Of a stretch of 64,000 nt of DNA, positions 6,641-43,680 are shown one piece after another; position 1 is the first letter of the stretch, and every line of letters starts with the position of its first letter. The DNA comes from Ceratothoa steindachneri (Eukaryota > Arthropoda > Malacostraca > Isopoda > Cymothoidae). The stretch covers positions 53,443,034 to 53,507,033 of the forward strand of contig OZ018330.1 of the NCBI GenBank assembly GCA_963969495.1, in the 5' to 3' direction. A program made the translations under genes and the position numbers. Under the pieces are notes generated by a model. That model searched no databases. It saw only the letters and a program-made list of their open reading frames with translations, and had not been told where the DNA came from.

Positions 6641-6649
6641 GTAGTGATG

Positions 6650-7122: not shown

Positions 7123-7291
7123 ATCTATTTCTGTTTGATCACTATTATTGCTCGACTTAAGAGGGTCACCAGTTATAGAGGGTAAGCCGTTTGGCTCTTT
7201 TGTGTGTTTCTAATTACCAAGGGTGATTTGTCACCGAGGTTTGGTACCAGTCCTGGGTAGCCCAATAGGTTTCTTGGTACGGCTTGAAATA

Positions 7292-22229: not shown

Positions 22230-22284
22230 TTTACCTTACGGACAGGTATATTTCCAAACGAAATCGAAAACGTATATCTTTAGA

Positions 22285-22590: not shown

Positions 22591-22591
22591 C

Positions 22592-22592
<1 letters not shown>

Positions 22593-22634
<42 letters not shown>
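22593..22634. repeat. (GA)n microsatellite, left of the LINE
   Basis: About 21 uninterrupted GA units. A matching tract flanks the other side of the LINE (23985-24027). The tract falls in the coding part of a Polinton gene. Confidence 0.97.
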
Positions 22635-22636
<2 letters not shown>

Positions 22637-23983
22637 ACAAGGAGTAACAAGGAAAGTAAGTACCCTAGGAGACCTTACGGTCCATTCAAAGAGGGTACCT
22701 TTGGACTAGCAATTGAGCGGGCACATGGCTGCTCAATTGTTTTGCGTCCATAAACGGCCACTTTTCAAGACTTTGTCTAGTCTTGACTTGAACTGGTCAA
22801 CAGATTCACTGTTGACAACTTCCACTGGAAGTGCGTTCCACTTACCGCAGATACTGTAGGTGAAAAAGTTTCCACACAGATTGCGGTTGTAACGCTTCAG
22901 TTCAAGTTTGAAGCCGTGATTGCGCGTTCTGTTCTCACTCAGTGTGAAAATATCCCGGTAGTCAACATTGTCGAACCCTCGAAGTATTTTGAAGACTTCG
23001 ATGAGCTGACCACGCAGTCTACGGGTTTCCAGCGAGAACATATCTAACTCCCTTAGTCTATCCTCATAACTTTTATGTCGGATAGAGGGAATCAGCTTGG
23101 TTGCCCTGGCTTGTACGCGTTCCAATCTCGCGATGTCCTTTCGCAATGAAGGACTCCAAAATTGTACGGCATACTCCAGGTGCGGTCGGACAAGTGAGTT
23201 GTACAGGCACAGTACAATCTCCTGGTTCCGATAACCAAACTGGCGCTTAATATAGCCTAGCATCCTTTGGGCCTTTTTCTCCGCCTCAATGCACTGTTTC
23301 GAGAACTTGAGGTCACTAGTGATTGTTACACCCAAGTCCTTCTCAGTGTCACTCGATTCAAGAGCAGTGCCCTTAAGGATATACTGAGATTGGGGGTTTC
23401 TGTGGCCGATATGCATCACTTTGCATTTGCCCACGTTAAAAGGCATTTGCCACGTGTCCGACCACTCCCCAATCTTCCCAAGATCTTCCTGCAGGCGGGC
23501 AGTATTTCCATCCTTTGCAACGTTCATACCAAGCTTGGTATCGTCGGCAAATTTGGAAATCTTGGCAACCATGTCACCGTCCATGTCGTTGATGTAGATG
23601 ATGAATAGTAGTGGTCCCAGGACAGAACCTTGAGGCACCCCGCTAGTAACGGGCACCCACTCAGAAGACTGTCCATTCACCACCACCCGTTGCCGTCTGC
23701 CACTTAGCCAGTTCTCGATCCAGCCGGCTACCTTTCCGTCTATGCCAAGCGCTCGCACTTTCCGGAGAAGGCGGCGGTGTGGTACCTTATCAAAGGCTTT
23801 CTGAAAGTCTAGGTAGACCACATCCACCGCCTTGTCCCGATCGTGCTCGCTGAAAACGAAGTGGAAGAATTCTACAAGGTTCGTCAGGCATGACCGTTGC
23901 CTTCGGAAGCCGTGCTGGGAACTCCTCAGTAGCAGGTTTGACTCTAAATACGACGTCACTTTGTCCACCATGATGCTTTCCAT

Positions 23984-23984
<1 letters not shown>
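22635..23984 (-). mobile_element. 5'-truncated CR1-like LINE inside the Polinton
   Basis: The minus-strand copy carries the RT domain and a ~95-bp 3' untranslated region that ends with ACTCCTTGTTACT next to the GA tract. The 5' end starts abruptly at the other GA tract. Polinton coding sequence lies on both sides (MKKILFIPKE to the left; the ERELITILNN frame to the right), so it interrupts a gene. Confidence 0.85.
22733..23983 (-). CDS. CR1-like reverse transcriptase, intact frame, N-terminally truncated
   Basis: A 416-codon open frame from MESIMVDKVTSYLES to a stop at 22733. RT motifs in order: SSQHGFRRQRSCLTNLVEF; VVYLDFQKAFDKVPHRRLL (RT catalytic Asp region); VTSGVPQGSVLGPLLFIIYI; FADDTKLGMNV (the YADD-type catalytic box as FADD); then VRPHLEYAVQFWSP and RLERVQARATKLIP, and an end with GKWNALP. 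This is the RT and C-terminal part of a CR1-clade ORF2; the endonuclease is missing. No stop or frameshift is present, so the insertion looks young. The frame continues open into the TC tract upstream, which is not real coding sequence. Confidence 0.9.
   Translation of the reverse strand: MESIMVDKVTSYLESNLLLRSSQHGFRRQRSCLTNLVEFFHFVFSEHDRDKAVDVVYLDFQKAFDKVPHRRLLRKVRALGIDGKVAGWIENWLSGRRQRVVVNGQSSEWVPVTSGVPQGSVLGPLLFIIYINDMDGDMVAKISKFADDTKLGMNVAKDGNTARLQEDLGKIGEWSDTWQMPFNVGKCKVMHIGHRNPQSQYILKGTALESSDTEKDLGVTITSDLKFSKQCIEAEKKAQRMLGYIKRQFGYRNQEIVLCLYNSLVRPHLEYAVQFWSPSLRKDIARLERVQARATKLIPSIRHKSYEDRLRELDMFSLETRRLRGQLIEVFKILRGFDNVDYRDIFTLSENRTRNHGFKLELKRYNRNLCGNFFTYSICGKWNALPVEVVNSESVDQFKSRLDKVLKSGRLWTQNN

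Positions 23985-24027
<43 letters not shown>
23985..24027. repeat. (GA)n microsatellite, right of the LINE
   Basis: About 21 GA units with one GG. Together with the tract at 22593-22634 it brackets the LINE. This suggests insertion into a GA array, or that the LINE end primed or captured one. Confidence 0.95.
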
Positions 24028-24031
<4 letters not shown>

Positions 24032-24542
24032 CGCTACGCTCAAACTTAATACCATCTCAAGAAAGACTTATCTTTGGAGAGAGAATTGATTACTATACTC
24101 AATAATTCACACATGCCACCAGATAAACGTATTATACTTGATCAGAACACGTTGGAACAATATTTAAAACAGTATGATAAGGTTGTAAACTCACCTCCCG
24201 CTAATGTCAACCAGAATGATAGGGATCAAATAAACGAATATGTAGATGAAGTATTAGGAGCACTGGAGCCTAATGTTCGTGAAAGGAGTAGATTAATTTC
24301 TCAGACATTAAAAAATACAGGATTCAGTTGGGAAAATAATGGGGATGATTACAATCCGCGGTAAAAGACTCCCACAATCTAACATTATCGACCTCATAAA
24401 AAATTCGCAACGCCGGAAAGAATTAGAAAATATTACTCATGCATTAACTTCTTCCAATTTAATTTCAATGGTTTGCGCAAACACACGTCGTATTTCTCAC
24501 TATCGCCAACAACCCAAAATAGGGAACTGGTTGAACTATTAA
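24028..24542 (+). pseudogene. Polinton conserved protein of unknown function, split by the LINE
   Basis: Right part of a gene whose N-terminus (MKKILFIPKE) lies before the LINE. A frame from 24074 reads ERELITILNNSHMPPDKRII, then LEQYLKQYDKVV and a C-terminal continuation in a second frame (RGKRLPQSNIIDLIKNSQRR) to 24542. The series MKK-L-IP--, then ILNN----DK--L------YL, then RGK--P-SNI-DL is a recurring Polinton gene of unknown role; I give no function. There is one frameshift near 24350 besides the LINE. Confidence 0.5.
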
Positions 24543-24733
24543 TCAATTTCACTGATGGAAATGGCAACTAGATGGTCCAATCAAATAATTGTAAAAGGCT
24601 AAGTGGCAACTCCACTGTTATGTTAATACAAGAAAAAACCTGAAAATTCAAACCGCGTCAGAGAAATCCTATCCTAATGGCTTTTGTCTCACTGTCTGTC
24701 TAAATTCACACGAATACTCACGCGTAAGAAGCT

Positions 24734-25342
24734 ATGGCTCGATTCCAGGTGAAGCAAATTATACAACAAGAATATAAAGTTAATATATTTAGCCTTTTGA
24801 AGATTACTAGAACAAAATTCGGTTATGTTAGAGTGATCTTTGAAAATACCTATGGAAGAATCCGTTATAACAATAAACTATTCCTTAGTGAGGATGAGTT
24901 TTGGCTTGTGTTTGCTGCAATACACAGGTTAAAACAGAAAAATTTCCCCTATGTTGATCCTTTGTTGAAGGACTACGGTGTAAAGCAGTTAAAGTGTGTA
25001 GTGAAGGCCAACCCTAACAGTCTATTTCCAAATATCCATTTCGTTATTTACTGGAAAAGGGATGAAGATTTCATGCCTACACAATTTAAAAATGCGCTGT
25101 ACAATGAGTATGAAGTCAACACTTTTCTAAAACTTGAAGAAAAATTTAATCAAAATTTTCATCAAATGAAATGCTTACAGAATGCGGTTGATGTCTGTTA
25201 TCTTACATTCAACGATGGACTTGATGAATGGCGTAAACTTAAACCCACCATCACAGAAGTTGAGTATATAAAAAATATCTTGTTTGATGAGTTCCACTGT
25301 TTTCTCAACAAGAGGGGGAACAGTATCGAACTTGTGAAATAA
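24734..25342 (+). CDS. Intact Polinton protein of unknown function, 202 residues
   Basis: An uninterrupted frame from MARFQVKQIIQQEYKVNIFS to a stop after GNSIELVK. It is rich in aromatic and basic residues and has no signal peptide, membrane segment or motif I recognise. The pattern KITRTKFGYVRVIFEN and LSEDEFWLVFAAIHRL suggests a compact globular domain. It sits between the split gene and the integrase on the same strand. Its openness, in an element where most genes are broken, argues that it is a real gene. It might be a nucleic-acid-binding protein, but that is only a guess. Confidence 0.6.
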   Translation: MARFQVKQIIQQEYKVNIFSLLKITRTKFGYVRVIFENTYGRIRYNNKLFLSEDEFWLVFAAIHRLKQKNFPYVDPLLKDYGVKQLKCVVKANPNSLFPNIHFVIYWKRDEDFMPTQFKNALYNEYEVNTFLKLEEKFNQNFHQMKCLQNAVDVCYLTFNDGLDEWRKLKPTITEVEYIKNILFDEFHCFLNKRGNSIELVK

Positions 25343-25590
25343 TTTGTCCTCAGTGATCTTTACGACTACGTCACCATTACGTGTAAAGAAATTTAATAGA
25401 ATATCTATTTATCAACCAGTCTCACCATGAAAGTCATGAGGGTGGAATGTCACCAGCCTGGGTCATCAAGACTTGCAAGAAGAAAGTTTAAGTTTACCTA
25501 CCCAAGATAGAAATTATATTTTATCAGGGCACGATTCTTTAACAAATATGTTTATTCAAATACTGGATCATATAAAAAAAACCTTCTGAT

Positions 25591-25791
25591 ATGAATTTAA
25601 AAAAATATAAGGTTGAATTAAAAATAAACATTGATAATTTTTACCCGTTACATATCGAATACCGATTTACCGATTCGATTAATCCAGCTCTTTTGGTTCA
25701 CAAAATCAGTAAATGTGTACAAAGTAATAAGGTTGCGAACATCCATGAAATTCTAATTGAAATTATGTATTTTAATCTAGATGTAAAATAA
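25591..25791 (+). CDS. Small Polinton protein of unknown function, 66 residues
   Basis: Open frame MNLKKYKVELKINIDNFYPL to FNLDVK and stop, just before the integrase and on the same strand. The alternating pattern suggests beta strands and a helix. Coding by chance is possible at this length. No homologue is recognised. Confidence 0.35.
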   Translation: MNLKKYKVELKINIDNFYPLHIEYRFTDSINPALLVHKISKCVQSNKVANIHEILIEIMYFNLDVK

Positions 25792-25868
25792 AATTGGATT
25801 TTAAGATAAGTTGTCTTTTCATTGAATAGTTATATAAGATTGTAAGCTAGTCAGATATTCAGTTAGAA

Positions 25869-26906
25869 ATGAACCGTCGATTGTTACGCTTATATACATC
25901 CCCGAGTCTACCAACATCTTTTGGTGGGGTAAATCGACTACACCAATCTGTAATAAGGATCGCCAAAAGATGTAATGCGGAAAGCTTTCTCTCGGGTTTG
26001 GATAGCTATACATTACATAAACCCGTTCGAAAAAGATTCAAGACCAAACACGTAAAAGCGCGAGGCTCTAACGAGATCTGGCAACTAGATTTAACTGTGA
26101 TGTCCAAATATGAAAGTTTTAATTAGGGTGTACACTACATACTCTTTGTAAATGACGTATATTCTAGATATCTCTGGTTAATTCCTTTAAAGCAGAAGAC
26201 GGATTAGGTAGTGTCAAATGTTGTAAGAAATCTCATAGAAGAATCCGGATGGATTCCAGGTTATATATGTTTTGATGATGGAGGAGAGTTTAAGGAAATA
26301 AGATGAAACGTTTATAAAGCGAATTTAATATCGGCATTTATCATGTCAACTCCCTAAACAAAGATAGTTTTGTAGAGCGTGTACAAAGAACAATAAAAGA
26401 AAGACTTCAGATGCTTTACTTTTAATAATACCTGTAAATATATCGACGTGTTAGATGATTTTGCAAAGGCTTATAATAATTCTAGACATAGAATGATTGG
26501 GAACACACCGTTTAAAGTTATACACGACGTTGCTATACCGAAGCAGAGAGCTGAAGGTAAAAAAAAGAGGTTTCTATATAAGATCGGTGATTATGTTCGA
26601 ATCTCACGTGTTTCCAGTAAATTTAAAAAAAGGTACGAAATAGGGTGGAGTGAGGAAATCTACAAGATATATAAAATTTCAAATGTATTAGCCCTGTATT
26701 ATATTGAAGATTTAAATGGAGAACATATCGAAGGTGGGGTTTATGAAGAACTACAGAAAGTAAAATTTGACTCCCGTAAGAAATATGTAGTGGAGAAGAT
26801 AGTTAAAGCGAAAGGGCATGGAAAAAACAAGCTATATTTAGTAAAATGGTGAGGGTATCCAGAATCGTTTAACTCATATATCACAAGACATGTGATATTG
26901 CCCTAA
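25869..26906 (+). pseudogene. Polinton retrovirus-type integrase with chromodomain, broken
   Basis: Starts MNRRLLRLYTSPSLPTSFGG. The zinc-binding N-terminus is partial. The rve core has WQLDLTVM (first Asp, ~26090), CFDDGGEF (second Asp, ~26270-26290) and FVERVQRTIKERL (Glu, ~26370-26405). The C-terminal part reads FAKAYNNSRHRMIGNTPFKV, GDYVRISRVSSKFKK and a chromodomain-like tail (VEKIVKAKGHGKNKLYLVKW, stop, GYPESFNSYI). In Polintons this enzyme joins element ends to a staggered 6-bp target, as seen at this element's flanks. At least five stops or frameshifts fall between 26120 and 26425, plus the TGA in the chromodomain. Confidence 0.9.
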
Positions 26907-26972
26907 AATCTTGAGCAAATACATTGATAAAATTATATAAAGGTTGGAAATGTAGAAGGTTTTATATCAGTT

Positions 26973-27749
26973 GTGAAGATGGAACCAGGGAGTTTTTATG
27001 TAATCCTTCCTTCTTCGTCCTCCCTGGATGTTTACCCTCAAAATACCATATCTGACTATAGAATCGAGTTGCACAAATCCATAATAAAAAATCACAGGGA
27101 ATATGAAGTAGGTCTTTGTGAGTTTCAATTTACAGGAAATATCTATAATGTTACTAAGTCTACACATGCATTCACAGTCTTTTGGAAAATCGCGGAAGTA
27201 AACAACTATGCATCAAATATTATATTCGCAAGAGGAAAGGTAACAAAAATAAAAGAAATTAACTATGCTTATGATGAGATATGGATAGACGCTGGATATT
27301 ACAAAAATGAAAAAGCACTCATAGAGAAAATGAACCTGAAAATGAAACAGAAATTATCATCTCAAGATTTAATGTTTCAATCTGACAGAGAGCAACGGAA
27401 AATGCCTACTGATTATATATTAATGCTCACTTCAGGTTCATTGCTCAACGTGAAAAGGAAAGAAAATCTATTAATTCATCTGTCAAAAGGATTTTCCACT
27501 ATAATGAAAAGATCTATCAGAGATGATATCCCCAAATTAAATAATTGTATAGCGTTCAATATAGATTTTACTGCTCTTATATCTCATCCGAGATCATGTT
27601 ACATTTACTCTAACCTTGTAGATTATCATTTAGTAGGCGGGACACAGTCGAGGCTGATGAGAATTATTCACTTTCATTTCAGTGATGGTTCATTCAGTGT
27701 AACTTTTGATAATCCACACTATCTGAATCTAAGCTCTGTGGACTTATGA
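26973..27749 (+). CDS. Polinton penton-like minor capsid protein, intact, 258 residues
   Basis: Starts MKMEPGSFYVILPSSSSLDV. The opening FYV-LPS-SS-D-YP-NT---Y with EYEVGLCEFQF (~27100-27130) is the signature of the Polinton minor capsid protein, predicted to be a single jelly roll equivalent to a penton. Later parts include DYILMLTSGSLL and RIIHFHFSDGSFSVTFDNP. No break is seen in 258 codons, close to the family's usual size, though a short C-terminal tail may be lost beyond 27749. It sits just before the small core-like gene and the major capsid gene, forming the structural block. Confidence 0.8.
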   Translation: MKMEPGSFYVILPSSSSLDVYPQNTISDYRIELHKSIIKNHREYEVGLCEFQFTGNIYNVTKSTHAFTVFWKIAEVNNYASNIIFARGKVTKIKEINYAYDEIWIDAGYYKNEKALIEKMNLKMKQKLSSQDLMFQSDREQRKMPTDYILMLTSGSLLNVKRKENLLIHLSKGFSTIMKRSIRDDIPKLNNCIAFNIDFTALISHPRSCYIYSNLVDYHLVGGTQSRLMRIIHFHFSDGSFSVTFDNPHYLNLSSVDL

Positions 27750-27861
27750 TCAATTTATATCTATATAAGAACGGTTGAAGGAGAAAAATGTCCATTCTTT
27801 GTTGTTGGTCATTTGATGATAAAACTACACATTAAGAGTAAACATTAAACGATAATTAAAA

Positions 27862-28269
27862 ATGTTGAATGGATCATGCGTGTTTAAAGGGTTAAGAGCC
27901 CAGAGTGGACATGTTCTCGGATCCCTCTTCCCTTCCCTATACAGAAATGCAGCACTATATCCAAGGAGTGGTGCTAGTTATCTAGGAAAGAAGGCTATTT
28001 CAGCCGGTTTCGATACTGTTCAGGATATTGTGCATGGAAAGAGTGCGAAGCAAGCTCTGAGAGACCAGCTCGGAAGGGTAAAAAATAATATCACTAAAGA
28101 TATTAGACAGTATATTAGAAGAAAGTTAAAATCTGAGAGGGATAATGAGAGGAAATCAGAAAAAATAGTTATAATAAATAAGCGAAAATGGATGAATAAG
28201 AAGTTAAAGAATAGAAGAAAGTTAAAAATAGATGATGATGATGAGGCTGGGGATGTGTTTTTCTCATAA
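27862..28269 (+). CDS. Small basic Polinton virion-type protein, 135 residues
   Basis: Open frame starting MLNGSCVFKGLRAQSGHVLG. A segment SLFPSLYRNAALYPRSGASY then LGKKAISAGFDTVQDIVHG is an amphipathic stretch like that of the pX/pVI-like proteins next to Polinton capsid genes. The C-terminal half is very basic (RRKLKSERDNERKSEKIV, NKRKWMNKKLKNRRKLK), then acidic DDDDE. The charge suggests DNA condensation or capsid lining. Position between penton-like and major capsid genes supports a virion role. The function is inferred. Confidence 0.65.
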   Translation: MLNGSCVFKGLRAQSGHVLGSLFPSLYRNAALYPRSGASYLGKKAISAGFDTVQDIVHGKSAKQALRDQLGRVKNNITKDIRQYIRRKLKSERDNERKSEKIVIINKRKWMNKKLKNRRKLKIDDDDEAGDVFFS

Positions 28270-28339
28270 TATAAACCATCAGACATTTCATAGATGTTCT
28301 CATAAAGATATCAACGGCTCTAAATCTTACACTTGTAAA

Positions 28340-29626
28340 ATGAATGCTCTTCATCCAATAAGTGATATCTGTTCAAAGACAGAATTCGATTTGCTTACTG
28401 TTCCACCAACCTAAACTTCCATCGTTGAAAGCAATTATCAGTCTTACTCTCCCCTCGGCAATATCTCTTCCAACCTCACACCGGTTGAATATTATGTATC
28501 TGGTACCGGACAGTATTATGTAGACCCTAGTGAGGTTTATCTTTATATTAAAGCAAGAATTGTGAAGTCAAACGGAGGCCAACTTATAGATGGGGAGAAT
28601 GTTTTTCCTGAAAATAATATTATTCACACTTTGTTCAGCAATGTTGATATATATTTAAATGAAGCATCTGCAAATTTGATTGGAAATAATTACCCCTATC
28701 GTGCATATTTAGAAACCCCGTTGAACTATACTGAAGAAGAAAAATCTACTTTTCTTCCCACTGCAAGATATTACTCTAGTAAAGAACGTATAGAAAATAA
28801 ATATAGCAGATCTCAGAAAAAAACTAATTGATGTATATGGTAAACTACACGCTGATTTCTTCTCACAACATAAGCTGTTAATTAATGGAGTCTCAATAAA
28901 GATAAAGTTATCCAGAGCACCACATTCATTTACACTATTTAAAAGCCAGATCGGTTTAGAAGCTAAAATAGAATTATTAGAGAGTTTTCTTTACATTAGA
29001 AAAGTCCATCTTTCAGCATCAGCTTATCTAGAGATGGAAAATAGGTTTGCTTAAAATCAAACGCTAAGTACCCTATCACACAAGTTCGCATGCGAATTTT
29101 TACAATTGTGAGTGGAATATCAATGAAGAATGTGGATAATATCTTCATAGGGCGAATACCTACACGCAAGGTTATAGGAATGGTTGATCATTTTGCATTT
29201 TCTGGTAGTTTTGATGCATCAACGTTCGAATTTAAACCTTATAATGTGAATCGCCTCATTATCGATATAAACGGGAATGAAGTTGAAAGACCATTTGAAT
29301 TAGACTATTCGGACGATACAGATCCAGTTGCGTCAAGGGCTTTTTACTCGTTATATAACGGTATAGGGTGTATTGGGGGTGGGCAGAGTATTGGAATTAC
29401 GTATGAACAATTTATAAAAAGTAAAAATATTTATTGTATTAACCTAAATCAGGACAAGATTACTACTTGTCTTGGAGAATGCTCCAATCCTATACAACAG
29501 GGAACATTATCAGTACAATTAGCGTTTAAATCTCCATTAATAGAACCGGTCTCCCTTGTTATACATGCAGAGTTTCAGTCTTTTATTGAGATAGATAAGT
29601 CAAGGAACATAATAGTTTATTCTTAA
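28340..29626 (+). pseudogene. Polinton major capsid protein (double jelly roll), broken
   Basis: The ATG at 28340 gives MNALHPISDICSKTEFDLLT and VPPT before a TAA at 28412-28414. The frame then continues SPLGNISSNLTPVEYYVSG, YVDPSEVYLYIKARIVK and FSNVDIYLNEASANLI with NYPYRAYLETPLNYTEE (~28690-28740). A frameshift near 28795 moves the reading to LLINGVSIKIKLSRAPHSF and SFLYIRKVHLSASAYLEM. A second frameshift near 29055 restores the first frame for IFIGRIPTRKVIGMVDH and the C-terminus. These blocks are typical of Polinton/adintovirus major capsid proteins. The last ~85 residues lie within the terminal repeat and are duplicated at 17412-17670. Confidence 0.9.
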
Positions 29627-31040: not shown

Positions 31041-32250
31041 AACACCATCTACCCTTTTCAGCTGTTTATTTACAGATGAAAGTTCAATACCGTCTTGAAA
31101 TGATTATTAACAGATGAACGTCCTATACCCTCTTCAGCTGTTCATTAACAGATAAACCTCCTCTAAGCTATTCAGTTATTCAGCTGTTAATTTACAGATG
31201 AACGTCCTATACCCTCGAGCTGTTCATTTGTAGATGAACGTCATCTACGCTCTTCAGTTGTACATTTACAGATGAACGTCATATCCTATCTCCAGGTGTT
31301 CATTAACAGATGAACGACCTCAAGCCTTTTCAGCTGTTCATTTGCAGATGAACGTCCTCTACTCTCTTGAGCTGTTCATATGCAGATTAACGTCCTCTAA
31401 CTTCTTCAGCTATTCATTTACAGATTATATTTCCCTGCCTTCTACAGCTGTTCGTTTAAAGATGAACGCCCTCTACCCTCGAGGTATTCATTTGTAGATG
31501 AACTTCCCCATACCCTCTTTAGCTAATCATTTTCAGATGAACGACTTCTAGTGGCTAGCCTTTTCAGCTGTCCATTTGCAGATTAACGTCATCTAACCTC
31601 TTTAACTGTTCATTAACAGATGAACGTCCTATACTCTAATCCGTTATTCATTGCAAATGAACGTCCTCTACCCTCTTCAGCTGTTAATTTGAAAATGAAC
31701 GTCCTCTACCCTCTTCAACTGTTCATTTTCAATGAACTTTCTCTACTTTCTGGATCTGGTCATACGTAGATGAACGTCCTCTATCTTTTATTACTGTTTA
31801 TTTGCAAATGAACGTCCTCTATCTTTTTCAGGTGTTTATTTTCAGATGAACGGCCTCTACCTTTTCAGTTGTTTATTTGCAGATGAACGTCATCTAGCGT
31901 CTCGAATTGTTCGCTAACAGATTAACGTCCAGTACCTATTTCAGCTGTTTATTTGAAGATGAACGTCTTCTACCATCTTGAGCTGTTCGTTAGCAGATGA
32001 ACGTCGTATACCCTCTTCAGCTGTTTATTAACAGATAAACATCCTCTAACCTATTTCGTTATTAATTTCAGATGAACCTCCTCTCCGCTCTTCAGCTATT
32101 CATTTACAGATGAACGTCCTCTACCCCCTAGCTGTTCATTTACAGATGAACGTCCTCTACGCTCTTCAGCTGTTCATTAAAAGGCGAACGAGCTCTAACT
32201 TTTTCATCTTCCCATTTGCAGATGAACATCCTCTACTTTCTTGAGCTGTT
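31041..32250. repeat. 38-bp minisatellite, middle block
   Basis: About 32 degenerate units of the pattern TCAGCTGTTCATTTACAGAT + GAACGTCCTCTACCCTCT. Each unit holds a short near-palindrome, GTTCAT...ATGAAC. The left edge is the right target copy of the Polinton. The right edge ends in CTGTT, the 5-bp target duplicated by the LTR element at 32251. Confidence 0.93.
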
Positions 32251-33423
32251 TGTCTAAGTATGGGCAAGTGTATGATAATATGCGCACACAGGCTCTAAGG
32301 TAGGCCAAGCAAGGCGACAACTGTTATTGTTGTAAGAGTCCGATTTGAATAGATAGCGGCAGCTGCGTGACAAAGGAATATACCAAACACAACGATAAAA
32401 ATAGATTTTAATACACACTAAATAAAAGGCACAACAATAAATATGGATATACATATATGGGTACATGAATAAGACGGAATTAGGTTCCGAATACTAATTA
32501 GATAACCTGGGGTTTTAAATGGTTATAATGGGAGATTTAGGGTAGTGAGTGATTTAGTCCCTTTAAACCTCTAGAGTAAAGCGGAGCAAACTTGGAGGAG
32601 GTCTTGGTGGCCTTGATTATTCAAGGGGGGTACCCACAAACCAGCAGCGGGTGGGGCTACTTTCTCGAACTTGTGTTTTGCGAGATGCGGGCCTCTTTTC
32701 CTCAGCAGGTCACCGGATGAACTTCTAAGGGGTGGGGGGGGGGGGGTGACTTCTCCACACTCGGCTTGAGTGATCTAACGGGCCTCTTGTCCTCAAAAGG
32801 TCACTAGAAGAACTTTGGAGGACAGCTCTTCCAATCCTTGATCCGAAGGCGGTGGAGAAAGGCTGACGTTGCCTCACAAGACTCTTCTTCCTGACCCGAA
32901 GATACGGGTGTGATGTCCAGCTCTTCAGTGGCTTGCGCCCGGCACTCACACCTCTCGGGAGAGAACTTCGTTGAATTGAACTCCTTTCGGGGCAGTATCG
33001 TCTAACCAAATATGCCTGTAATCCTGGAGAGGGTGCATATAAACCCGGAGTTCTCTAGAACAGGGAGAGAGATGAGCCTTCTCAAACCCTCGTTATCTGG
33101 TGTGACAAACCGAGCGTCTCCTTGCGGGGAAGTGTCAACGACAGGGATCAGCGGGCCAGACTGACGACCTGCGGCTGGAGCCATAAAAGCTGTTCGCGGC
33201 GAACCTACAAAGTAATCTCCCGACCCGAGGGGGGGGGGATTGAGGTGGCGGTGAGGTAGCCTCAATTTCAGCATCATGCCTCGTGTGAATTTTGCGGAGA
33301 CCAGGCGGCAAGTCCAAAAAGGGTGAAGTCAGAGGGGGGAGGGGGAGTAACTGCTCGCTTTCTTTCCCGAAGTAATATCTTAGGAGGCGGGGAAATAATA
33401 TTATTCTAGGGGATACCTCTGCA
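32251..33423 (-). repeat. 3' LTR (left copy)
   Basis: 1,173 bp beginning TGTCTAAGTATGGGCAAGTG and ending GGATACCTCTGCA in plus orientation. It matches 38445-39556 along its length, with scattered substitutions and small indels. The purine-rich tract expected next to it on the minus strand is weak (GGATAGGTAGGAC). Confidence 0.92.
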
Positions 33424-33659
33424 GTCCTACCTATCCAAAGAACTTTGGAGCGAAAAAAATGTATACAATTTTTAAGTTTACCAATAGAGGAAAAGAAAAT
33501 ATAATACTATACGTGATTTACATATGTGTAACCCAGATAACTTAATCTATACATATGCACACACAACATCAACAAGGCAAAAAAAATAAGAAAAATAGTA
33601 TTTAAAAAAATGAATCAAACGCGAATTTTACTATACACTCAGGTTGTTGGGGGCTGGGG
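33424..33659. other. Untranslated region between RNase H and 3' LTR
   Basis: AT-rich, non-coding. It lies downstream of the pol gene on the minus strand. Confidence 0.5.
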
Positions 33660-34286
33660 GGTCTTCTAGTGGATGCCTACTCAAGCTATCAGCTAGGCAG
33701 TTGTCAGTGCCTTTGACATACAGGATCCGAAATTTGTACTCCATGAATAGTAGGGTCCAGTAGGTGTACAGCTTTTTAGGTACACCTTGGGTTTGTGATC
33801 ACTTTTGACAATAAATACTTTACCTATGAGATACATCCTAAACTTACGAATAGACCACACTATGGCTAACGCTTAAAGCTCTATAGTAGCATACGCCTTT
33901 TCGCTATGAGACAGCTTCCTGCTAGCATATCCTACAGGATTTCTCACTCCATCGTCATCATATTGGACGAGAGCACAACCTAGGCCATCCTTGGAGGCAT
34001 TGGTACGAACACCGAATGTTTTATTAGGATTCGCTAATCTTACGATAGGAGCAGAGATTAGCTTGTCCTTCAACTGGTGAAAGCAATCTTCCGCAGAAGG
34101 GGTTCAATTGACTTGATTGGGGGCCATTCTCTTAAGCATGTCGTTAAGGGGTGAAGCTATGGCAGCGGAATTCGGCACAAAACGACGATAGAATGACACG
34201 GATCCCAAAAAAGAACGAAGCTGTTTCTTCGTTCGAGGAAGTGGCATTTCCGAAATATCCTTAACCCTGTCGTCCTGGGGTAGCAT
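33660..34286 (-). pseudogene. RNase H and RT connection region of the LTR element
   Basis: PRTKKQLRSFLGSVSFYRRF (34240-34180) is the RT thumb/connection. KTFGVRTNASKDGLGCALVQ (~34035-33975) is the start of RNase H, where the first catalytic Asp (usually TDAS) is Asn. SHSEKAYATIEL is followed by a TAA in place of the catalytic Glu codon's neighbour, then ALAIVWSIRKFRMYL and VKSDHKPKVYL (third acidic residue). RNase H removes the RNA template during reverse transcription. The gene is disabled by the Asn and the stop. Confidence 0.85.
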
Positions 34287-34343
34287 TTGGTTTCTACCAA
34301 CCTGGAAGCCAAGGTAATTAATAGTGTCATAGGCGAAGTGACA

Positions 34344-35000
34344 CTATGTCGGACCTACCGTGAACCCGTGTACGCGTAACCGGGATAGAAGCGCGCACAA
34401 AGAATGTAAATGTTGATCCCAGGTACGAGTAGCGATGTACACGTTATCGAAGTAAAACATCACATTCGATAGGCCATCTAACAACCAACGCATGATCCTG
34501 TTAGAGCTTCCGCAAGCAGTTTCCAGTCCAAAAGAAAGGCGGGTAGACTGTAATAATCCCTTTTCAGTAGCTAAAGCGGTAAAGTGTTTTGATTGCTCTG
34601 CAAGCGGCACTTGGTGGTAGGCTTTACAGAGGTCGATCTCGTATATGAACTTTGCGTCTTCGAAGGCATGAAGACTTTGGTCGATTAGGGGTATCAGTTC
34701 CGCGTCAAACTAGGTAACCGCGTTTAATTTTCAAAAATCAACGCACATCCTAAACGACTTGTCAGGCTTCCTAACCATGATAATGGGGGAGCAGAATTCG
34801 GACGACGAGGGTTCTATTATGCCTAATTTTAATAAGTTCTCTATCTCTGCATCGAAAGTTGACGGTAAATAGACGGGTATGGGATAAGGCTTGGTCCTTA
34901 TCGCATCTTGGGTAGCGAGAACAATCTCATGCGTTAATTGGGTTGAGCAACCCGGGAATTCTGAAATGACGTCGATAAAACCTTCCGATAAGGCAAACAA
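34344..35000 (-). pseudogene. Reverse transcriptase core of the LTR element
   Basis: The RT starts in the long frame shared with integrase: LTHEIVLATQDAIRTKPYPI, LGIIEPSSSEFCSPIIMVRK and SFRMCVDF end near 34731. A stop near 34710 follows, then FIYEIDLCKAYHQVPLAEQS (first catalytic Asp) and a frame with LSFGLETACGSSNRIM. VMFYFDNVYIATRTWDQHL holds the catalytic box, where YFDD has become YFDN. The RT makes cDNA from element RNA; this copy cannot. Confidence 0.9.
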
Positions 35001-35483
35001 TTGAGCCCGCTCATTAGGGGAGAGATTGGGGTTCACGTCCAAGTCGGAGTGAGACTCCGCTTGGGGGAAAGGAAGAGACGGCAGGGGATACTCATCGTCT
35101 GCTTCTACGTACAGCGTTTGGACCAGAAACAAAGATTCAACGGGATAGGCGGCTTCGAGGACGGGTTCTTCGTCTAGGGCGACTATGTTATTAAGGCAAG
35201 CCCGGTGGTGGTATTTGTTTAGGAGGTTGATGTAGAAAATCTTATTACCGAAGGGGGTTTCGATTAGGTAATCCACCGGGCCACGGGGCTCTAAAACGGA
35301 GAAAGGTCCTTTCCAGTAGGAGAGGAGCTTATTCACTTCGGAGGGAAGCAAGAGCAGTACTTTTATCCCTGGTTTGAATAAACGCCCTTTTGATTTTAGG
35401 TCAATGTAGGTGCGATATTTCTCCAGGTTTACATTGGTGTTCCGGAGAGCGATGTCCGCACATTTTTCTAAACGTGTATGCAA
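34731..35483 (-). pseudogene. Continuous integrase C-terminus to RT frame
   Basis: A 250-codon open stretch. The first ~80 codons hold the integrase C-terminal module (LLLPSEVNKLLSYWKGPFSV, GPVDYLIETPFGNKIFYINL). A ~60-codon acidic linker follows (VEADDEYPLPSLPFPQAESH), and then the RT N-terminus. In most Ty3/gypsy elements the integrase C-terminus is the end of pol; here RT follows directly. This frame is the strongest evidence for the unusual gene order. It lies within a gene that is broken elsewhere. Confidence 0.92.
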
Positions 35484-36364
35484 GTCTAAAACGTACGCCT
35501 AAGAGGATTTAATTTCCTAATCCATTCTAGGATTGGACCACAATTCTTTTAAAATGCTCATTGGTCCTCTGAAGTTACGTCTATATAACAGCTCAAAGGG
35601 AGCGAACCCCAAAGTCCTATGGGGGACTTCGTGACAAGCAAATAACGCTACGGGGAGATAGCGGTGCCACTCTTAGGGCTGATCGTGGCACACCTTCTTG
35701 AGTACCATTTTGAGGGTGCCGTTTTCCTTTTCGCACATCCCGTTAGCGGAAGGGTGCCGGGCGTCGTGGAGAGAGGCTTGATGAGAAGGAGTTTACCGAC
35801 ATACTCCATCAATTCAGAGGTGAATTGACGTCCTCTGCCGGATAAGATCTCCTTCGGGATCCCTAATCGGTAAAAGATTGAGATTAAAGCTTCTGCACAA
35901 GAAATGCTGTTAATCTTCTTCATGGGGATAGCCTCTGGAAAACGGGTGGCACAATCAACGAGTGTTAAAATATAGGAGTGTCCCTTACTCGACGGAGAAC
36001 GAATGGGGCCTATTAGGTCGATTGAGACCAGGGCAATGTGCTCGGCCACTCACGGGGTCTTTTGAAGGGGGCCAGGGGCTACACGCCCTTTAGAGGTGAC
36101 CTTCTGACAAAGAACACAGGACTTACAGAAGTCGATAATTTCTTTGGCCGCTCCTGGCCAAAACAAATATTTTAAAACTCGCTGTGCCGTTTTCTTATGG
36201 CCGAAATGTCCGGCCATTAGGCCATCATGAGCTATCTCTAGAACGGGTTCAATATAAGTTCTGGGAAGACACAACGTGTTGGTTGGGGGGCTCTCTGGTT
36301 CAACAGAAGAACGATATAATAACTTATCCTTTACGGTGTATTCGATCTTGCGGTTGCCTCGCAC
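35484..36364 (-). pseudogene. Integrase zinc-binding and catalytic domains of the LTR element
   Basis: H2C2 finger: AHDGLMAGHFGHKKTAQRVL followed by FCKSCVLCQK (36240-36100). Catalytic core: LVSIDLIGPI (first Asp, ~36020), GIPKEILSGRGRQFTSELM, where the usual second Asp position is Gly (~35840), and, in another frame, GMCEKENGTLKMVLKK (Glu, ~35720). EVPHRTLGFAPFELLYRR follows. Stops occur near 35675, 35520 and 35500, with a frameshift near 35780. The enzyme would insert cDNA with a 5-bp stagger, matching the flanking CTGTT. Confidence 0.9.
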
Positions 36365-36394
36365 CGTTTCAGTCTCCTTTTTCCTTGCTTTTTC

Positions 36395-36790
36395 TCACAG
36401 GGGTTGTAATGTGGGGCATTTCTTCTGTGCCTCAGCAAATTGGACATTGGTGGTGAGGTCAATGTCTGGGGACGATAGGGGTACCGGAAGCGATACATCA
36501 TTCTCGGCCTGGGCCTTTGTAACGACTGGCTGAGAAATTGTGTTTGGAGAGAGCTGTGCGCTCTGTCCGATAAGGATGGAGCAGAATTTTATCGGGGCCG
36601 CGACTACATCAGTCCATCCGGTGAAATACTGGCACTGTATATGGTTACCGTGCCACTGGGAATCTGGTGGCACGACCTTAAAAGTCATGCACCAACCCGA
36701 ACTTATTATGCTGGGGACATACGGGCGGGTAGTAGTTTGTCGGAAACTACTATACAGGTGAAACTTGTATCTCTAACCAGGGTTAGCACT
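36395..36790 (-). pseudogene. Protease region of the LTR element
   Basis: VNGCQVLTLVRDTSFTCIVV (~36800-36740) aligns with the retropepsin start, where the D-T-G motif reads D-T-S. It is followed by a stop, and then a frame with HIQCQYFTGWTDVVAAPIKF and CSILIGQSAQLSP gives the C-terminal half. The RDTG-T--V pattern and AP-KF--LIG fit proteases of Gmr1-like elements. Retropepsin would process Gag and Pol. Confidence 0.65.
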
Positions 36791-38113
36791 TGGCAACCAT
36801 TTACTGCGCCATTTTCAAACTGGAGCCCACCGGGAGAACTCTTGTTGAACAGGAAATTTACCTGTTGATCCGGGGGAGGGGGAGCAGGGGCTGCTGACGA
36901 TGCGGCTGGCGGATTAGGCGAGAGGGCAGCAGAGATTTGGTGGACCTGGTGACTCGACGAGGTCCTCAGTTGAGAATTTTGGGGGCAATTGTAACTCAAT
37001 TGCCCAGGTGTGCCACACGTAAAGCATACAATTGGTCTCCGGGGGTAGTTGCTAGGCGTGGAGGGGAGTAACGGGGACTTCACGTCCTTTTGTTCTCTCA
37101 GCGATTGAGGCCTGTACTTGTTCGGCGCCGGTACTTGTACGAAGCCGTTGTTGCCCTTGGGTTTGGTTCGGTTAAACCCAAACTTGTGTTTGGGGGAGGG
37201 GGTCGTTCTTGTTGACCCCCTTGGGGTAGAAGTCGTGACTGGAAGCGTGAAGGTCGGCTTCTTCCACACACTCCTTGAAAGTATGCGCTCTTCTGTCCGC
37301 TATGAAGTCCCTTAGTTCGCGAAGGAGGGTCGATATCAGTTGATCCCTTAAAATGAAGTCAACTGACGACTCATAATCATTTGATACTTTGGCGGAATCC
37401 AGCCAGAATTGGAAATTACGTCGTAGCGTGAATCCAAATTGCCTGTAGGTTTGGCCTGGCTGTATTCACGTGGAGCGGAATCTAACCCTATAAAATTCTG
37501 GATCCATTTTAATAGCAGAAAGAAGTTCTGCCTTTAGGGTTGAATAATCAAGGGTGGCTTACGAAGAGAGCGAAATGAATATGCCGCGAAGACGAGGATT
37601 CAAGAGTAAAAGTATTCGGGTGATACCATCTGATTCTAAGTCCTAATTGTTGACTTAGAAGATCTTCTCGAAGTGCGTTAAATAAGAGCAAAAATCTTCT
37701 CTATCTTTGTATGCGGGGAGTTTTAGTGAGGGCACTTGAACCTGTTCATTTCGAGATCCTACGGAGTTTATCTCGACTTGGTCACGGCTTATCTCTTTTT
37801 CATGCTGCCTAATTCTTTCATTCTCTTCTGCTTCTCTCTTTGCTTTTCTTCCTTTGACTCCTGCTTCTCTCTGTGCTTTTCTTTCTTCGACTTCTGCTTC
37901 TAACTGTGCTTTTCTTTTTTCGTTTTCTCTCTGCCCTTTTCTTTCCGCACGTTCTTTACTTTCCTCTTCCTGGACGTAAGTGATTAAATCCTTCCCAGAT
38001 AAGCCTAAGGGTCTGCCCTTGCTTAGGAAAGCGATAGAATAATACATCCCTGATATGCTACTTCCGGCATTTGCACACAAAAAAGCTACCAGAGTGATTG
38101 AAGCTTTACCCAA
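36706..38113 (-). pseudogene. Gag of the LTR element
   Basis: The N-terminal frame (38113-37655) includes LSGKDLITYVQEEESKERAE and a long Lys/Glu/Arg-rich coiled coil (ERKAQREAGVKGRKAKREAE), then VPSLKLPAYKDREDFCSYLT. The middle (37640-37270) has YSTLKAELLSAI, QTYRQFGFTLRRNFQFWLDS and LRDFIADRRAHTFKECVEEA, a SCAN-like capsid end. The last part (37269-36706) is Pro/Ser-rich with CFTCGTPGQLSYNC, a CX2CX4HX4C knuckle whose His is Gln. At least two stops break it. Confidence 0.88.
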
Positions 38114-38444
38114 AGGAAAATATAAATTCCACTAACGACAAAAATTCTTAAAATTTCTAGTAAAAATCGGGCAAGCTCACACAAAAAAGTTAATAAATAA
38201 CTAACGGGTTAATCTGACTGACGACACAAAAAAAGGGCGGCTACTATTACCGCTTAGCTAGTATCCTCTTATAAGGAACTAGAAAAACTGTGGACACACC
38301 ACACAAGGATGGGTTTAAAAATTAGTTCTTACCCGTTAATACGAAAATGCAGCTGCTATCAATTGAACTTAGTGCTTCAAAATCAGGTGGGGAAGACCCA
38401 AAGCCTGACGCCAAATTATATATATAATATATGTATTATCTTTA

Positions 38445-39556
38445 TGTCGAAGTATAGCCAAGTGTACGGGAATATGCGCACACAGGCTCTAAGGTAGGCC
38501 AAGCAAGGCGACAACTGTTATTGTTCTAAGAGTCCGATTTGAATAGATAGCGGCAGCTGCGTAACCAAGGAATATACCAAACACAACGATAAAAATAGAT
38601 TTTAATACACACTAAATAAAAGGCACAACAATAAATATGGATATATATGGGTACATGAATAAGATGGAATTAGGTTCCGAATACTAATTAGATAACCTGG
38701 GTTTTTAAATGGTTATAATTGGAGATTTAGGGTAGTGAGTGATTTATTTTTTTTGAACCTCGAGAGTAAAGTGGGGCAAACTCGGGGAAGGTCTTGGTGA
38801 CCTGGATTACTCATGGGGGGTAGCCTCTTGCCCTGAGCAGATCACCGGGCGAACTTCGAAGGGGTGGGGGGATGACTTTTCCACACTCGGCTTGAGCGAG
38901 ATAACGGGTCTCTTGCCCTCAAAAGGTCACCAGAAGAACTTCGGAGGACGGCTCCTCCAATCCTTGATCCGAAGGCGGTGGAGAAAGGCTGACGTTGCCT
39001 CACGAGACTCTTCCCTCTGACCCGAAGATACGGGTGTAGTGTCCAGCTCTTCCATGGCTTGCGACTATCGCTCACACTTCTCGGGAAAGGGCTTCGTTGA
39101 ATTGAACTCATTTCGGGGCAGTGTCGTCTAACTAAATGTGCCTGTAATCCTGGAGAGGGTACATATATACCCGGAGTTCTCCAAAACTGGGAGAGAGAGA
39201 GGCCTTCTCAAACCCTCGTTATCAGGTGTGACAAACCGACCGTCTCTTTGCGAGGAAGGGTTAAGGGTAGGGATCAGTGGGCCAGACGGACGACCAGCGG
39301 CTGGAGGCATAAAAGCTGTTGGCGGCGAACCTACAAAGTAATCTCCTCACCCGAGTGGGATGGAAGGGAAGATTGAGACGGCAGGAAGGTAGTCTCAATT
39401 TCACCGTCATGCCTCGTGTGAATTTTGTAAGGACGTGGCGACAATTTTAAAAAGGGTGAAGTCGGAGGGGGGGGGGGAAGTAACGGCTTGCCTTTTCTCC
39501 CGAAGTAATATCTTAGGAGGTGGGTAAATAATATTATTCTAGGGGATACCTCTACA
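38445..39556 (-). repeat. 5' LTR (right copy)
   Basis: 1,112 bp beginning TGTCGAAGTATAGCCAAGTG and ending GGATACCTCTACA (plus orientation). It should contain the promoter, read leftward. The AT-rich stretch between the LTR and TTTGGCGTCAGGC (38405-38417) separates the LTR from the best candidate primer-binding site, so the primer tRNA cannot be named. Confidence 0.92.
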
Positions 39557-40424
39557 CTGTTCATATGCAGATAAACGTCCTCTACCTTCTACAGCTCTTT
39601 ATTTACATATAAACGTCTTCCAACCTCTTTAGGTGTAAATTTACAGATGAAATTCATCTGCCCTCGCCGCCGTTCATTTACAAATGAACGTCCTCTACCT
39701 TCGAGCTTTTCAATAGCAGATGAACGTCCTCTACCCTCTTCAGCTGTTTATTAACAGACTAACAACCTCTAGCCTTTTCAGCTGTCCATTTGCAGATGAA
39801 CGTTATCTAACATCTTGAGCTGTTCATTATCAGATGAAAGTCTTCTACTCTATTCATCTCTTCATTGCAGATAAACGTCCTCTACCCTCTTCATTGTTCA
39901 TTTGCAAATGAAATTCCTCTACTCTCTCCAGTTGTTCATTTCCAGAGGAACGTAATCTACCGTCTCGAACTGTTCTTTAATAGATTAACGTCTAGTACCT
40001 TCTTCAGCTGTTTATTTGCAGATGAACGTCCTCTACCGTCTTGAGCTGTTCATTAACAGTTGAACGTCATATACCCTCTTCAGCTGTTTATTAACAGATA
40101 AACGTCCTCTACCCTATTCAGTTGTCCATTGCAGATGAACGTCCTCTAGGCTCTTCAGTTGTTCATTTATAGATGAACATCCTCTAACCTGGAGCTGTTC
40201 ATTAATATATGAACATCTTCTACCCATTTCAGCATTTCATTAACAGATGCACGCCATCTACTTTCTTCAGCTGTTCATATAAAGATGAACGTCCTCTAAT
40301 CTCCAGCTATTTATTTGCAGATAAACCTCCTCTACTCTCTTCAGCTGTTTATATGCAGATGAACGTCCTTTTAGCTAGCCCCTTGAGCTGTTCATTAGCA
40401 GATGAACTTCCTTTACCCTCTTGA
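39557..40424. repeat. 38-bp minisatellite, right block
   Basis: About 23 units of the same pattern as 31041-32250, resuming exactly at CTGTTCATATGCAG after the LTR element. The units degenerate and stop near 40424. Confidence 0.92.
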
Positions 40425-41523
40425 TCTTTGAGGCTCATATCTCCACTAGGAAAATGTTGCAACCACCGCTCCATTGTACTCGTAGTATCTGTAGTGTTTG
40501 CTTCCCCTCATACCAGTCAATCCTGGAACCAATTTGAAACGCATCTCGACCAGGTTTTGAATATATACAGCATTGTAATTACAAGACTGCCTTTTTCCTT
40601 CTTAATTTTAAGGCTCTGTCACACTTAAATGTTAACTTTGATAACAAAATGAAAGAATTTCTAAAAGGAATACATTTTAGTTAAAATGAGTTTTTTATAT
40701 TGGTGAAATAACATGACTGAATGTTGCCATTGTTTTTCGACTCTGTTAGTATAAGTGAACCACTTTTAGGTCCGAGTCTAAAGTCCTTTGCTAAGGCTCA
40801 ACGCCATATTGTACATACTTTGAGAATTACAATTTAGATTGCGTTATCTATTTAGTTACTAAATAAATTCTGTTAAGTTGAAATGACAGTTAAGGCAATT
40901 AAAATGGAAATGCTTAAATAAAATGTAAATTTTTCAAAACCCTTTATATAGATGGTTTACCTCAACTCCTTTTTTCTATAAGCTTCTATCTACAATTCAA
41001 GCAGTTTCGTGTATAACGTTTCGCATCAGAGGTTGATGTTAAAATTGGAGTTATATGTGATCTCAGACTCAATATTAGATTAAGTAGATGTGAAACAGGA
41101 AATAACTAATAAAAATGTAGTTACGCCACCTGCTTAGCGGCGCACAGCCGTGCCTCAACCGCTCCATCATTGGTGATGTGGCCAGATTTGCGGTGGCTAG
41201 GCAAGGTGTTTTTGTTCGTACTCTCGCTGGTGGCACCATCACATATTTTAATGGAACCTAACGAAGTTATTCACACGAGATGTGACTTTCATTGAAGCCA
41301 TGATGAGAATAAGCTTTGTTCGTTGTTACTGTTAGCCGAAAAGGGTGACGCTACCATAAAGAAGTTGTGTGAACGCGCCCTAAATGGTCAAAAATCAGTA
41401 TAAGCCCACTATCAGCGGAGTCCCACTATGATCTGTTTTGGAGTTACCATTATTTGTTCTATTAAGTCATTGATTTAAATAGTGATCTGAAAGCTAAAGT
41501 ATTAGTTTACAGATGATATTAAG
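40425..41523. other. Non-coding DNA
   Basis: No gene, RNA or repeat was recognised. Several short frames exist without protein similarity. Confidence 0.45.
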
Positions 41524-42050: not shown

Positions 42051-42545
42051 ATAATTTGTTTGCTTTTTTTGTTGATAGCTAAGTGAAATATCAGCGTGGC
42101 ATCAAAGTGACCGGATGAAGATCGATTTTGTAAAATGGAAATTAATAGATGTACAGTAGTGATCAAATTATTATGGATTTCTTGAAAATTCGTAAATTTT
42201 ATGGTAAAAGGTAAATTAAAACTCTTTAATGAGTCAATAATGAAATTATTTTATCATATTAGTATGATATAACTATTATAAATTTTTGAAGACTAAATAT
42301 TAAATTGTTTTGCTTCAAACTCGTTGAAATAAATTAATGCAACACCGATTCGGTTTTGCCAGCTGCGGAAATTGTTACTCTTGTGCCTCAATTCCAATTC
42401 AGACTTCGCAAGGTGAGGGTGGGTGAGCTATTCTCTTTTGCTGTTACTCACCCAGTAATTCAACTAGTGTGTAATTTGCTTGCTTATGGATAATAGTAAC
42501 CGTTTTTTCTTGCAGCGTAATAGATAAAAAAGAAAGTGAACAGCT

Positions 42546-43680
42546 ATGGGTAAAGTCAGTGGCTTGATTTTTCGGAAAATTGGACAAATCAAAGTTTTAT
42601 TAAGTGATAGTGCACTAAAACATAAATCTATTGCCAAGAAATTGGGAGACTGTTCTCACACAGTAAGCAATATAAAAAAAAAATATGAAAACGGTCTTAA
42701 TTTAGATTTAGCAAGGGCTGAGAAATGTGGTCGCAAGATGAAAATAGCACTAAGAACAGACAAAAAAATAAAACAAATGGCTATTGAGGACAAAAGCAAA
42801 TCTAGTAGGAAGATTGCAAGCGAAGTGTTAACAGATGATATTAGTCTTTCTCGAATAACAGTAAAAAGGAGGTTACTGGGCAGTGAATTACGACCCTACC
42901 GTCCAAGAAAGAAGCATTGGCTTACCAAAACCAGGATACAGGCACGTCAAATCTGGGCTAATGCTCATGTTGATTGGACTTCTAAGCAATGGGAACTGGT
43001 AAGAGTGGTACATTTACCAGTTATTTTCTTTATTAAGCGTAAGTGAACATACTGTACCTAATGTAGTAGGTACATTGTGATTTACCTACTAGCTACGCGT
43101 TCATGCTGAATGAAATAATTTCAAGTCATAGTTTGTCTGGCTGTTTAACTGCTGCCACTAACATCACAGATGGTTTCAGTACTGCTATAATGCTTTATAT
43201 TGTTGCAGGTTGTGTTTTCGGACGAATCAACTAGTGTAGTACTTGGTGACTGTTTGCAGACAGTAAGGAGGCGATCAAGTGAGAAGTTTATGCCAGAGTG
43301 TCTTAAAAAGACTAAAACATTCACAGAAAATCATGGTATGGGGAGCAATTTCTGTACATGGGACAAGTTGCTTGAATATTGCTGAAGGTATAATGAATCA
43401 GTATAAGTATATTGAAGTACTAAAGAACCGTTTGGTACCTCAGATGATGGAATAGTTCGGTGACAGATCATACATATTTCAGCAATACTCGGCTCCTTGT
43501 CACACGGCGCGATCAGCGAAGACATGGTGTGCACAAATGGCATTGAACTGCTATCATGGCCTAGAAATTCCCTAGACATGAACCCTATTGAGATACACGA
43601 AGTTCCCATAACAACCAAAGCAAAGCTCATAGAACGTCTTATCTACGTTTAGCTTTAATCTGACAGAATCGAGCAATTAT
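42546..43680 (+). pseudogene. Tc1-like (DD34E) transposase with intron-like insert
   Basis: MGKVSGLIFRKIGQIKVLLS opens a 150-codon DNA-binding part with two helix-turn-helix regions (HKSIAKKLGDCSHTVSNIKK, then SSRKIASEVLTDD, ITVKRRLLG, YRPRKKHWLTK). The next segment after the insert begins VVFSDEST (first catalytic Asp). The second block reads QQYSAPCHTARSA, where the usual Asp is Tyr, and the last, MNPIE, holds the Glu. Frameshifts near 43350-43560 and the Tyr disable it. Confidence 0.88.
42999..43209 (+). other. Probable spliceosomal intron in the Tc1-like transposase
   Basis: A GTAAGA donor at 42999 and TTGTTGCAG acceptor ending 43209 enclose 211 bp with stops in the reading frame. Joining the flanks keeps the frame through the conserved WE-V-FSDES region. 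Tc1 elements usually lack introns, so an insertion that happens to end in GT...AG is the alternative. Confidence 0.65.

What the first reader, a model, noticed from the sequence alone, without database searches (positions are those of the whole stretch)
32251..39556. Ty3/gypsy element with integrase upstream of reverse transcriptase
One open frame (35483-34731) runs from the integrase C-terminal module into RT, and the catalytic integrase domains lie upstream of it, so the pol order is protease-integrase-RT-RNase H. This Copia-like order within Ty3/gypsy is the mark of the Gmr1-like group, first recognised in deuterostomes. A copy with both LTRs and a perfect CTGTT duplication in what looks like an arthropod is notable.
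Basis: partly seen in the sequence, partly recalled or inferred. Interest (0 to 1): 0.75.

Follow-up and report, generated by a model that had tools for sequence, protein, structure and literature searches.

The report
Integrase-first retrotransposon with altered RT site
This is a decayed copy of a large family of jumping genes whose enzymes sit in an unusual order, a kind already reported from crustaceans, but whose copying enzyme nearly always carries a changed amino acid at a catalytic position that is needed for jumping in yeast relatives.

Summary
On the minus strand, 32251-39556 is an LTR retrotransposon (LTRs 88.9% identical) inserted in a 38-bp minisatellite; removing one CTGTT restores the 38-bp register. 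The order is gag-PR-IN-RT-RNase H. It is not a rearranged copy: of 84 loci fetched from the window's own 3.93-Gb genome, all 59 with both IN and RT/RNase H matches have IN first, none after. Relatives' capsids match Pfam SCAN, an independent mark of Gmr1-like elements. Gmr1-like elements were reported from decapod crustaceans in 2013, so the order is not new. No tree with named Gmr1 sequences could be made, and an arthropod host was not confirmed.

The unexpected part is the RT catalytic box. Its last residue is Asn instead of Asp (F-x-D-N, not Y-x-D-D) in 28 of 31 integrase-first loci that cover it, this copy included. Other catalytic residues are mostly kept, and synonymous sites between subfamilies are saturated. 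In Ty3 and Ty1 this change leaves polymerase activity but abolishes transposition (passages). A large family that carries it and has spread is puzzling and testable.

The parts
32246..32250 (.). target site duplication CTGTT, left copy
   Evidence: in-register empty-site test
39557..39561 (.). target site duplication CTGTT, right copy
   Evidence: in-register empty-site test
32251..33423 (-). 3' LTR (element sense)
   Evidence: 88.9% identical to the other LTR, TG..CA ends
38445..39556 (-). 5' LTR (element sense)
   Evidence: 88.9% identical to the other LTR
38404..38413 (-). primer-binding-site-like TGGCGTCAGG, 31 nt inside the 5' LTR; primer tRNA not identified
   Evidence: read; L041 has TGGTGTCAGG and L042 TGGTATCAGG at the comparable place
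37658..38131 (-). gag, N-terminal piece (low-complexity, coiled)
   Evidence: tblastn to relatives L039-L042; no Pfam family over cut-off
37175..37465 (-). gag capsid piece, SCAN-like
   Evidence: SCAN 13.9 bits in this copy (cut-off 27); relatives at or over cut-off
36709..37299 (-). CCHC knuckle and protease start (DTS here; DTG in most relatives)
36053..36394 (-). integrase H2C2 zinc domain
   Evidence: PF17921 4.6e-17
35651..36049 (-). integrase catalytic core
   Evidence: PF00665 7.7e-10; PDB matches include PFV integrase
35199..35498 (-). integrase C-terminal domain, in the same frame as RT
   Evidence: PF24626 2.4e-4 (below cut-off); conserved in relatives
34107..34997 (-). reverse transcriptase, fingers to thumb, three stops inside
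   Evidence: PF00078 6.7e-13 on 34347-34709; Ty3 RT 3.1e-10; pieces
34443..34445 (-). codon AAC (Asn) at the second position of the RT catalytic pair: FYFDN instead of YxDD
33696..34103 (-). RNase H, one stop inside
   Evidence: PF17919 7.8e-21 and PF17917 1.3e-8 on the two pieces
31500..32245 (.). 38-bp minisatellite array into which the element inserted, left part
39562..40500 (.). 38-bp minisatellite array, right part

Best explanation
A decayed copy of a Gmr1-like Ty3/gypsy LTR retrotransposon with a SCAN-like gag and pol order PR-IN-RT-RNase H. It replicated as LTR retrotransposons do: RNA packed in Gag particles, reverse transcription from a tRNA primer, integration with a 5-bp target duplication (shown here for this copy). 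The family's RT works with a catalytic box F-x-D-N, the second Asp being replaced by Asn as an inherited, selected state rather than by decay (inferred). The enzyme probably uses the two remaining Asp residues for metal binding and is slower or less processive, as the Ty3 and Ty1 mutants are, with changes elsewhere making up for it (inferred).
For: Order and domains. Ty3 type: this copy's RT piece matches only the two Ty3 entries in the PDB at E<=0.01; L042's RT matches Ty3 best, 1e-54; the zinc domain is PF17921 and the RNase H PF17917/PF17919. SCAN at or over Pfam's cut-off in 4 of 8 capsid-region pieces scanned (L042 33.9, L017 32.4, L036 30.6, L030 27.0 against 27), lower in 2 (L038 22.7, this copy 13.9), none in 2 (L034, L037). 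Asn at the box in 28 of 31 integrase-first loci with a readable codon, 24 AAC and 4 AAT, in each of three subfamilies (tree of 26 such loci). Other catalytic residues kept: IN D 35/37, D 33/38, E 33/40; RNase H D 41/42, E 37/43, D 37/43, D 38/42; PR D 18/22; RT motif A D 49/51; first D of the box 25/31. Synonymous distance undefined (saturated) for the 15 between-subfamily pairs printed. L042 has a 1498-aa open frame and LTR stretches 98.4% identical over 799 bp; L041's LTRs are 95.8% over 1128 bp. Precedent: Ty3 D214N keeps polymerase activity in vitro (PMC5371799, passages), Ty1 D211N likewise, with partial suppressors in RNase H (PMC2148107, passages).
Against: In Ty3 and Ty1 the same change abolishes transposition. 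L040 has Asp (GAC), L039 Lys, and L064 is frameshifted there. Within one subfamily dN/dS for the RT core was 0.24 (L042-L056) but 0.98 (L042-L067), so selection is shown by divergence between subfamilies, not within. A second LTR stretch of L042, rich in tandem repeats, is only 91.4% identical. The 31 loci are related copies chosen for similarity, not independent events.
Confidence: 0.7

Rival explanations
1. The Asn copies are not autonomous: a smaller set of copies with Asp at the box supplies active RT, and the Asn copies are carried along.
For: L040 has Asp. A helper-dependent subfamily exists in this genome: L052, L057, L061, L062 and L069 share two deletions that remove integrase and RT motifs A to C. 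Asn abolishes transposition in Ty3 and Ty1.
Against: Asn is in 28 of 31 loci and in each subfamily while PR, IN, RNase H and RT motif A residues are kept, which passengers would not need. The Asp copy L040 is itself broken into several frames with LTRs 91.2% identical.
Confidence: 0.17
2. An ordinary gypsy element of another clade in which this single copy was rearranged.
For: This copy is heavily decayed.
Against: IN first in 59 of 59 loci with both domains; IN C-terminus and RT in one frame; LTRs and TSD intact.
Confidence: 0.01
3. An integrase-first lineage that arose independently of Gmr1 within Ty3/gypsy.
For: No named Gmr1 sequence was available; the RT lies on a long branch from Ty3 and from two DUF7041 gypsy loci of the same genome.
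Against: SCAN-like capsid in relatives, said in print to mark Gmr1-like gag (PMC4592553, passages); Gmr1-like elements known from decapods by RT/RNase H tree (PMC3587641, passages).
Confidence: 0.1
4. The residue is changed after transcription, by RNA editing, so that the enzyme made has Asp.
For: Would reconcile the conserved genomic codon with the mutant data; no direct evidence.
Against: No editing data here; the genomic state would have to be kept by selection on something else.
Confidence: 0.02

Closest known systems
Gmr1-like Ty3/gypsy elements (Goodwin and Poulter 2002, cited in PMC3587641; paper itself not seen)
   Same: Pol order PR-IN-RT-RNase H, Ty3-type domains, SCAN-like capsid in relatives
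   Different: RT box with Asn; whether named Gmr1 elements share this was not seen
GyRex4/5, Gychoro2, GyMaja1, GyLiva4 of decapod crustaceans (PMC3587641, passages)
   Same: Placed in the Gmr1 clade by RT/RNase H
   Different: According to the passages seen, GyRex4 and GyRex5 do not overlap, so the order was inferred by similarity; here a copy with LTRs and many more loci show it directly. Sequences not compared
Ty3 of yeast
   Same: Closest solved RT
   Different: Ty3 has YLDD at the box; its integrase lies after RNase H (recalled)
Ty1/copia elements
   Same: Pol order
   Different: RT, RNase H and the integrase zinc domain are of the gypsy families; no copia-type family matched the pieces at E<=0.1

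Membership tests
LTR retrotransposon | two LTRs with TG..CA ends and a target site duplication | tested here: met
Ty3/gypsy | gypsy-type RT, RNase H and H2C2 integrase | tested here: met
Gmr1-like | integrase upstream of RT | tested here: met
   this copy; 59 of 59 loci with both domains
Gmr1-like | SCAN-related capsid | tested here: met
   met for the family: 4 of 8 pieces at or over Pfam's cut-off; this copy itself only 13.9 bits against 27
Gmr1-like | groups with Gmr1 in RT and IN trees | not testable with these tools
   no named Gmr1 sequence found; tree holds Ty3, two DUF7041 loci and 26 family loci only
Canonical reverse transcriptase | YxDD catalytic box | tested here: not met
   FYFDN in this copy; Asn in 28 of 31 loci
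Ty1/copia | copia-type RT and integrase domains | tested here: not met
   no copia-type Pfam match at E<=0.1; PDB matches of this copy's RT piece are Ty3 only
Element of an arthropod genome | host is an arthropod | not tested
   the searches for an arthropod-type family did not complete

The most novel reading that the evidence does not exclude
A whole, multi-subfamily and recently spreading lineage of Gmr1-like retrotransposons uses a reverse transcriptase with only one of the two catalytic-box aspartates (F-x-D-N), the first natural lineage of LTR retrotransposons shown to do without it, and has evolved compensation that the Ty3 and Ty1 mutants lack.
Probability: 0.45. Interest if true: 0.75.

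Novelty: new variant of a known kind. Interest (0 to 1): 0.5.

Why it matters
The second aspartate of YxDD is treated as part of the universal RT triad (PMC2148107, passages). In Ty3 and Ty1 it can be lost for polymerization but not for transposition. A natural family that lost it and still spread would show what that residue is for and how its loss is compensated. The integrase-first order by itself adds a well-documented set of copies to a known group.

Tried and rejected
Protein searches of three pieces, scans of viral contigs with three single pieces and one alignment and of bacterial and archaeal contigs gave no confirmed relative, so no named Gmr1 sequence was available. A single-sequence fold of this copy's capsid piece had mean pLDDT 57.4 and was not used. 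The idea that the double-deleted loci are reverse-transcribed spliced RNA was dropped: the junctions are not GT..AG. Control for a conventional element: L074, L075 and L081 carry a DUF7041 gag with RT about 1.1-1.4 kb downstream, too near for an integrase between them; integrase itself lay beyond these loci, so conventional order is suggested, not shown. Their box is YMDD in L074 and L081; L075 has Gln there in a decayed stretch. Eight of the twelve DUF7041 loci gave no match. A divergent integrase-first group (for example L009, L029, L030) has its RT box beyond the locus ends, so whether it has Asp or Asn is unknown. Literature: searches for a natural Asn at the box (0 papers, 10 papers, off topic by title, 19 papers, 15 listed) showed no report; of the listed papers only PMC2148107 was opened, and the library lacks most subscription journals. 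Genome-wide counts of the Asn box were never obtained.

Full report
What is there. The element lies on the minus strand, 39556 to 32251. Its LTRs (38445-39556 and 32251-33423) are 88.9% identical. It sits in a 38-bp minisatellite; taking out one of the two CTGTT copies restores the 38-bp register exactly across the join, 82% match at shift 38 against 15-25% at five other shifts. This is better evidence than the pentamer, which is common in the array.

Domains and order. In element sense: gag, a SCAN-like capsid, a CCHC knuckle, protease (DTS here), integrase zinc domain, integrase core, integrase C-terminus, RT, RNase H. From 35498 down to 33696 one frame, with five stops, carries the integrase C-terminus, RT and RNase H. 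The RNase H piece ends 272 bp before the LTR. The copy is dead: stops in pol, gag in several frames, protease DTS where most relatives have DTG, RNase H TNAS where 41 of 42 loci keep the Asp.

Other copies. The window's genome is held as G000: 3,927,640,985 bases, 529 contigs. A search with the integrase-RT frame scored 149 matches (47,643 first-look candidates, so a lower bound). The window's own copy is one; the others are 57-82% identical, and each of the 149 spans from the integrase C-terminus into RT. I fetched 84 loci by four searches and one region call: 8 by this frame, 30 by PF17921, 30 by PF17919, 12 by DUF7041, 4 regions. Of these, 59 have both IN and RT/RNase H matches at E<=1e-3 and IN comes first in all 59 (12 of 12 found by the frame or fetched as regions, 24 of 30 by PF17921, 23 of 30 by PF17919); 17 have one kind only; 8 have none. 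The first two sets were chosen for likeness to this element, and the profile searches list only the best 150 each. No element with IN after RT was seen, but the conventional gypsy loci at hand were too short to show their integrase.

Gmr1-like or not. Reviews state that SCAN derives from Gmr1-like gag (PMC4592553, passages). SCAN was at or over Pfam's cut-off in 4 of 8 capsid-region pieces: L042, L036, L017 and, just at it, L030. It was lower in L038 and in this copy and absent at E<=0.01 in L034 and L037. A solved SCAN domain, ZNF24, was a weak PDB match (0.032). With the order this makes Gmr1-like membership likely; a tree with named sequences was not possible. Gmr1-like elements have been reported from decapods (PMC3587641, passages) and an annelid (PMC8220671, passages), so the order in a protostome is known.

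The RT box. The RT box of this copy is FYFDN. Among 31 integrase-first loci whose codon could be read, 28 have Asn (24 AAC, 4 AAT), this copy included; L040 has Asp, L039 Lys, L064 is frameshifted. A column count made slightly differently gives 27 of 31. Two DUF7041 gypsy loci in the same genome have YMDD and Ty3 has YLDD; a third DUF7041 locus, L075, has Gln in a decayed stretch. The other catalytic residues are mostly kept in the same loci. In a FastTree of RT motifs A to C the 26 family loci split from Ty3 and the DUF7041 loci (support 0.998); Asn is found in each of the three groups, whose supports are 0.987 (this copy's group), 1.000 and 0.999; L041's place is weak (0.505). Between groups synonymous distance is saturated; within the L042 group dN/dS was 0.24 and 0.98 for the two pairs computed. 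L042 has a 1498-aa open frame and LTR stretches 98.4% (799 bp) and 91.4% (752 bp, tandem repeats) identical; L041's LTRs are 95.8%, L040's 91.2%. So Asn looks inherited and kept, not decay.

Mechanism. In Ty3 RT, D214N keeps polymerase activity with lower processivity and is lethal to transposition (PMC5371799, passages). In Ty1, D211N keeps activity with a 223-fold lower kpol, loses transposition and is partly rescued by RNase H changes (PMC2148107, passages). I therefore think the family's RT works with two Asp residues and has compensating changes, location unknown. Shown: Asn in most loci, other residues kept, saturation between groups, younger copies with Asn. Inferred: that the enzyme works and that compensation exists. 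The main rival is that Asn copies are carried by rarer Asp copies.

Limits.

Noticed in passing
L052, L057, L061, L062, L069: A non-autonomous subfamily: five loci (two of them, L061 and L062, 5 kb apart) share the same two deletions relative to L042, removing integrase (3549-4680) and RT motifs A to C (4909-5473); L069 keeps a 513-aa frame.
   Followed up: partly
window 1789-7209 (-): Remains of another gypsy element with DUF7041 gag (PF23055 28.3 bits), a DTGA protease-like frame at 4952-5260 and RT-like frames at 1789-2551; frames at 3412-4690 on the other strand look like a DNA transposase insertion (by eye).
   Followed up: partly
window 18884-29626: May be a Polinton/Maverick-like element: weak DNA_pol_B_2 match at 18884-19369 (-) (19.5 bits, cut-off 25.8) and an integrase-tail-like frame with a weak chromo match at 26397-26852 (+). 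The naming is from memory.
   Followed up: no
window 22733-24067 (-): LINE-like RT frame of 444 aa, RVT_1 3.3e-29.
   Followed up: no
window 42540-43046 (+): Tc1/mariner-like transposase piece, PF01498 2.2e-11.
   Followed up: no
L042:2328-2465: The capsid region just before SCAN matched polyubiquitin chains in the PDB (best 2.2e-7) with no single stretch significant; probably a sum over repeats.
   Followed up: no
L009-L031 group: A second, divergent integrase-first group (about 31-50% identical in IN pieces) dominates the best PF17921 matches of this genome; L030 has SCAN at cut-off.
   Followed up: partly
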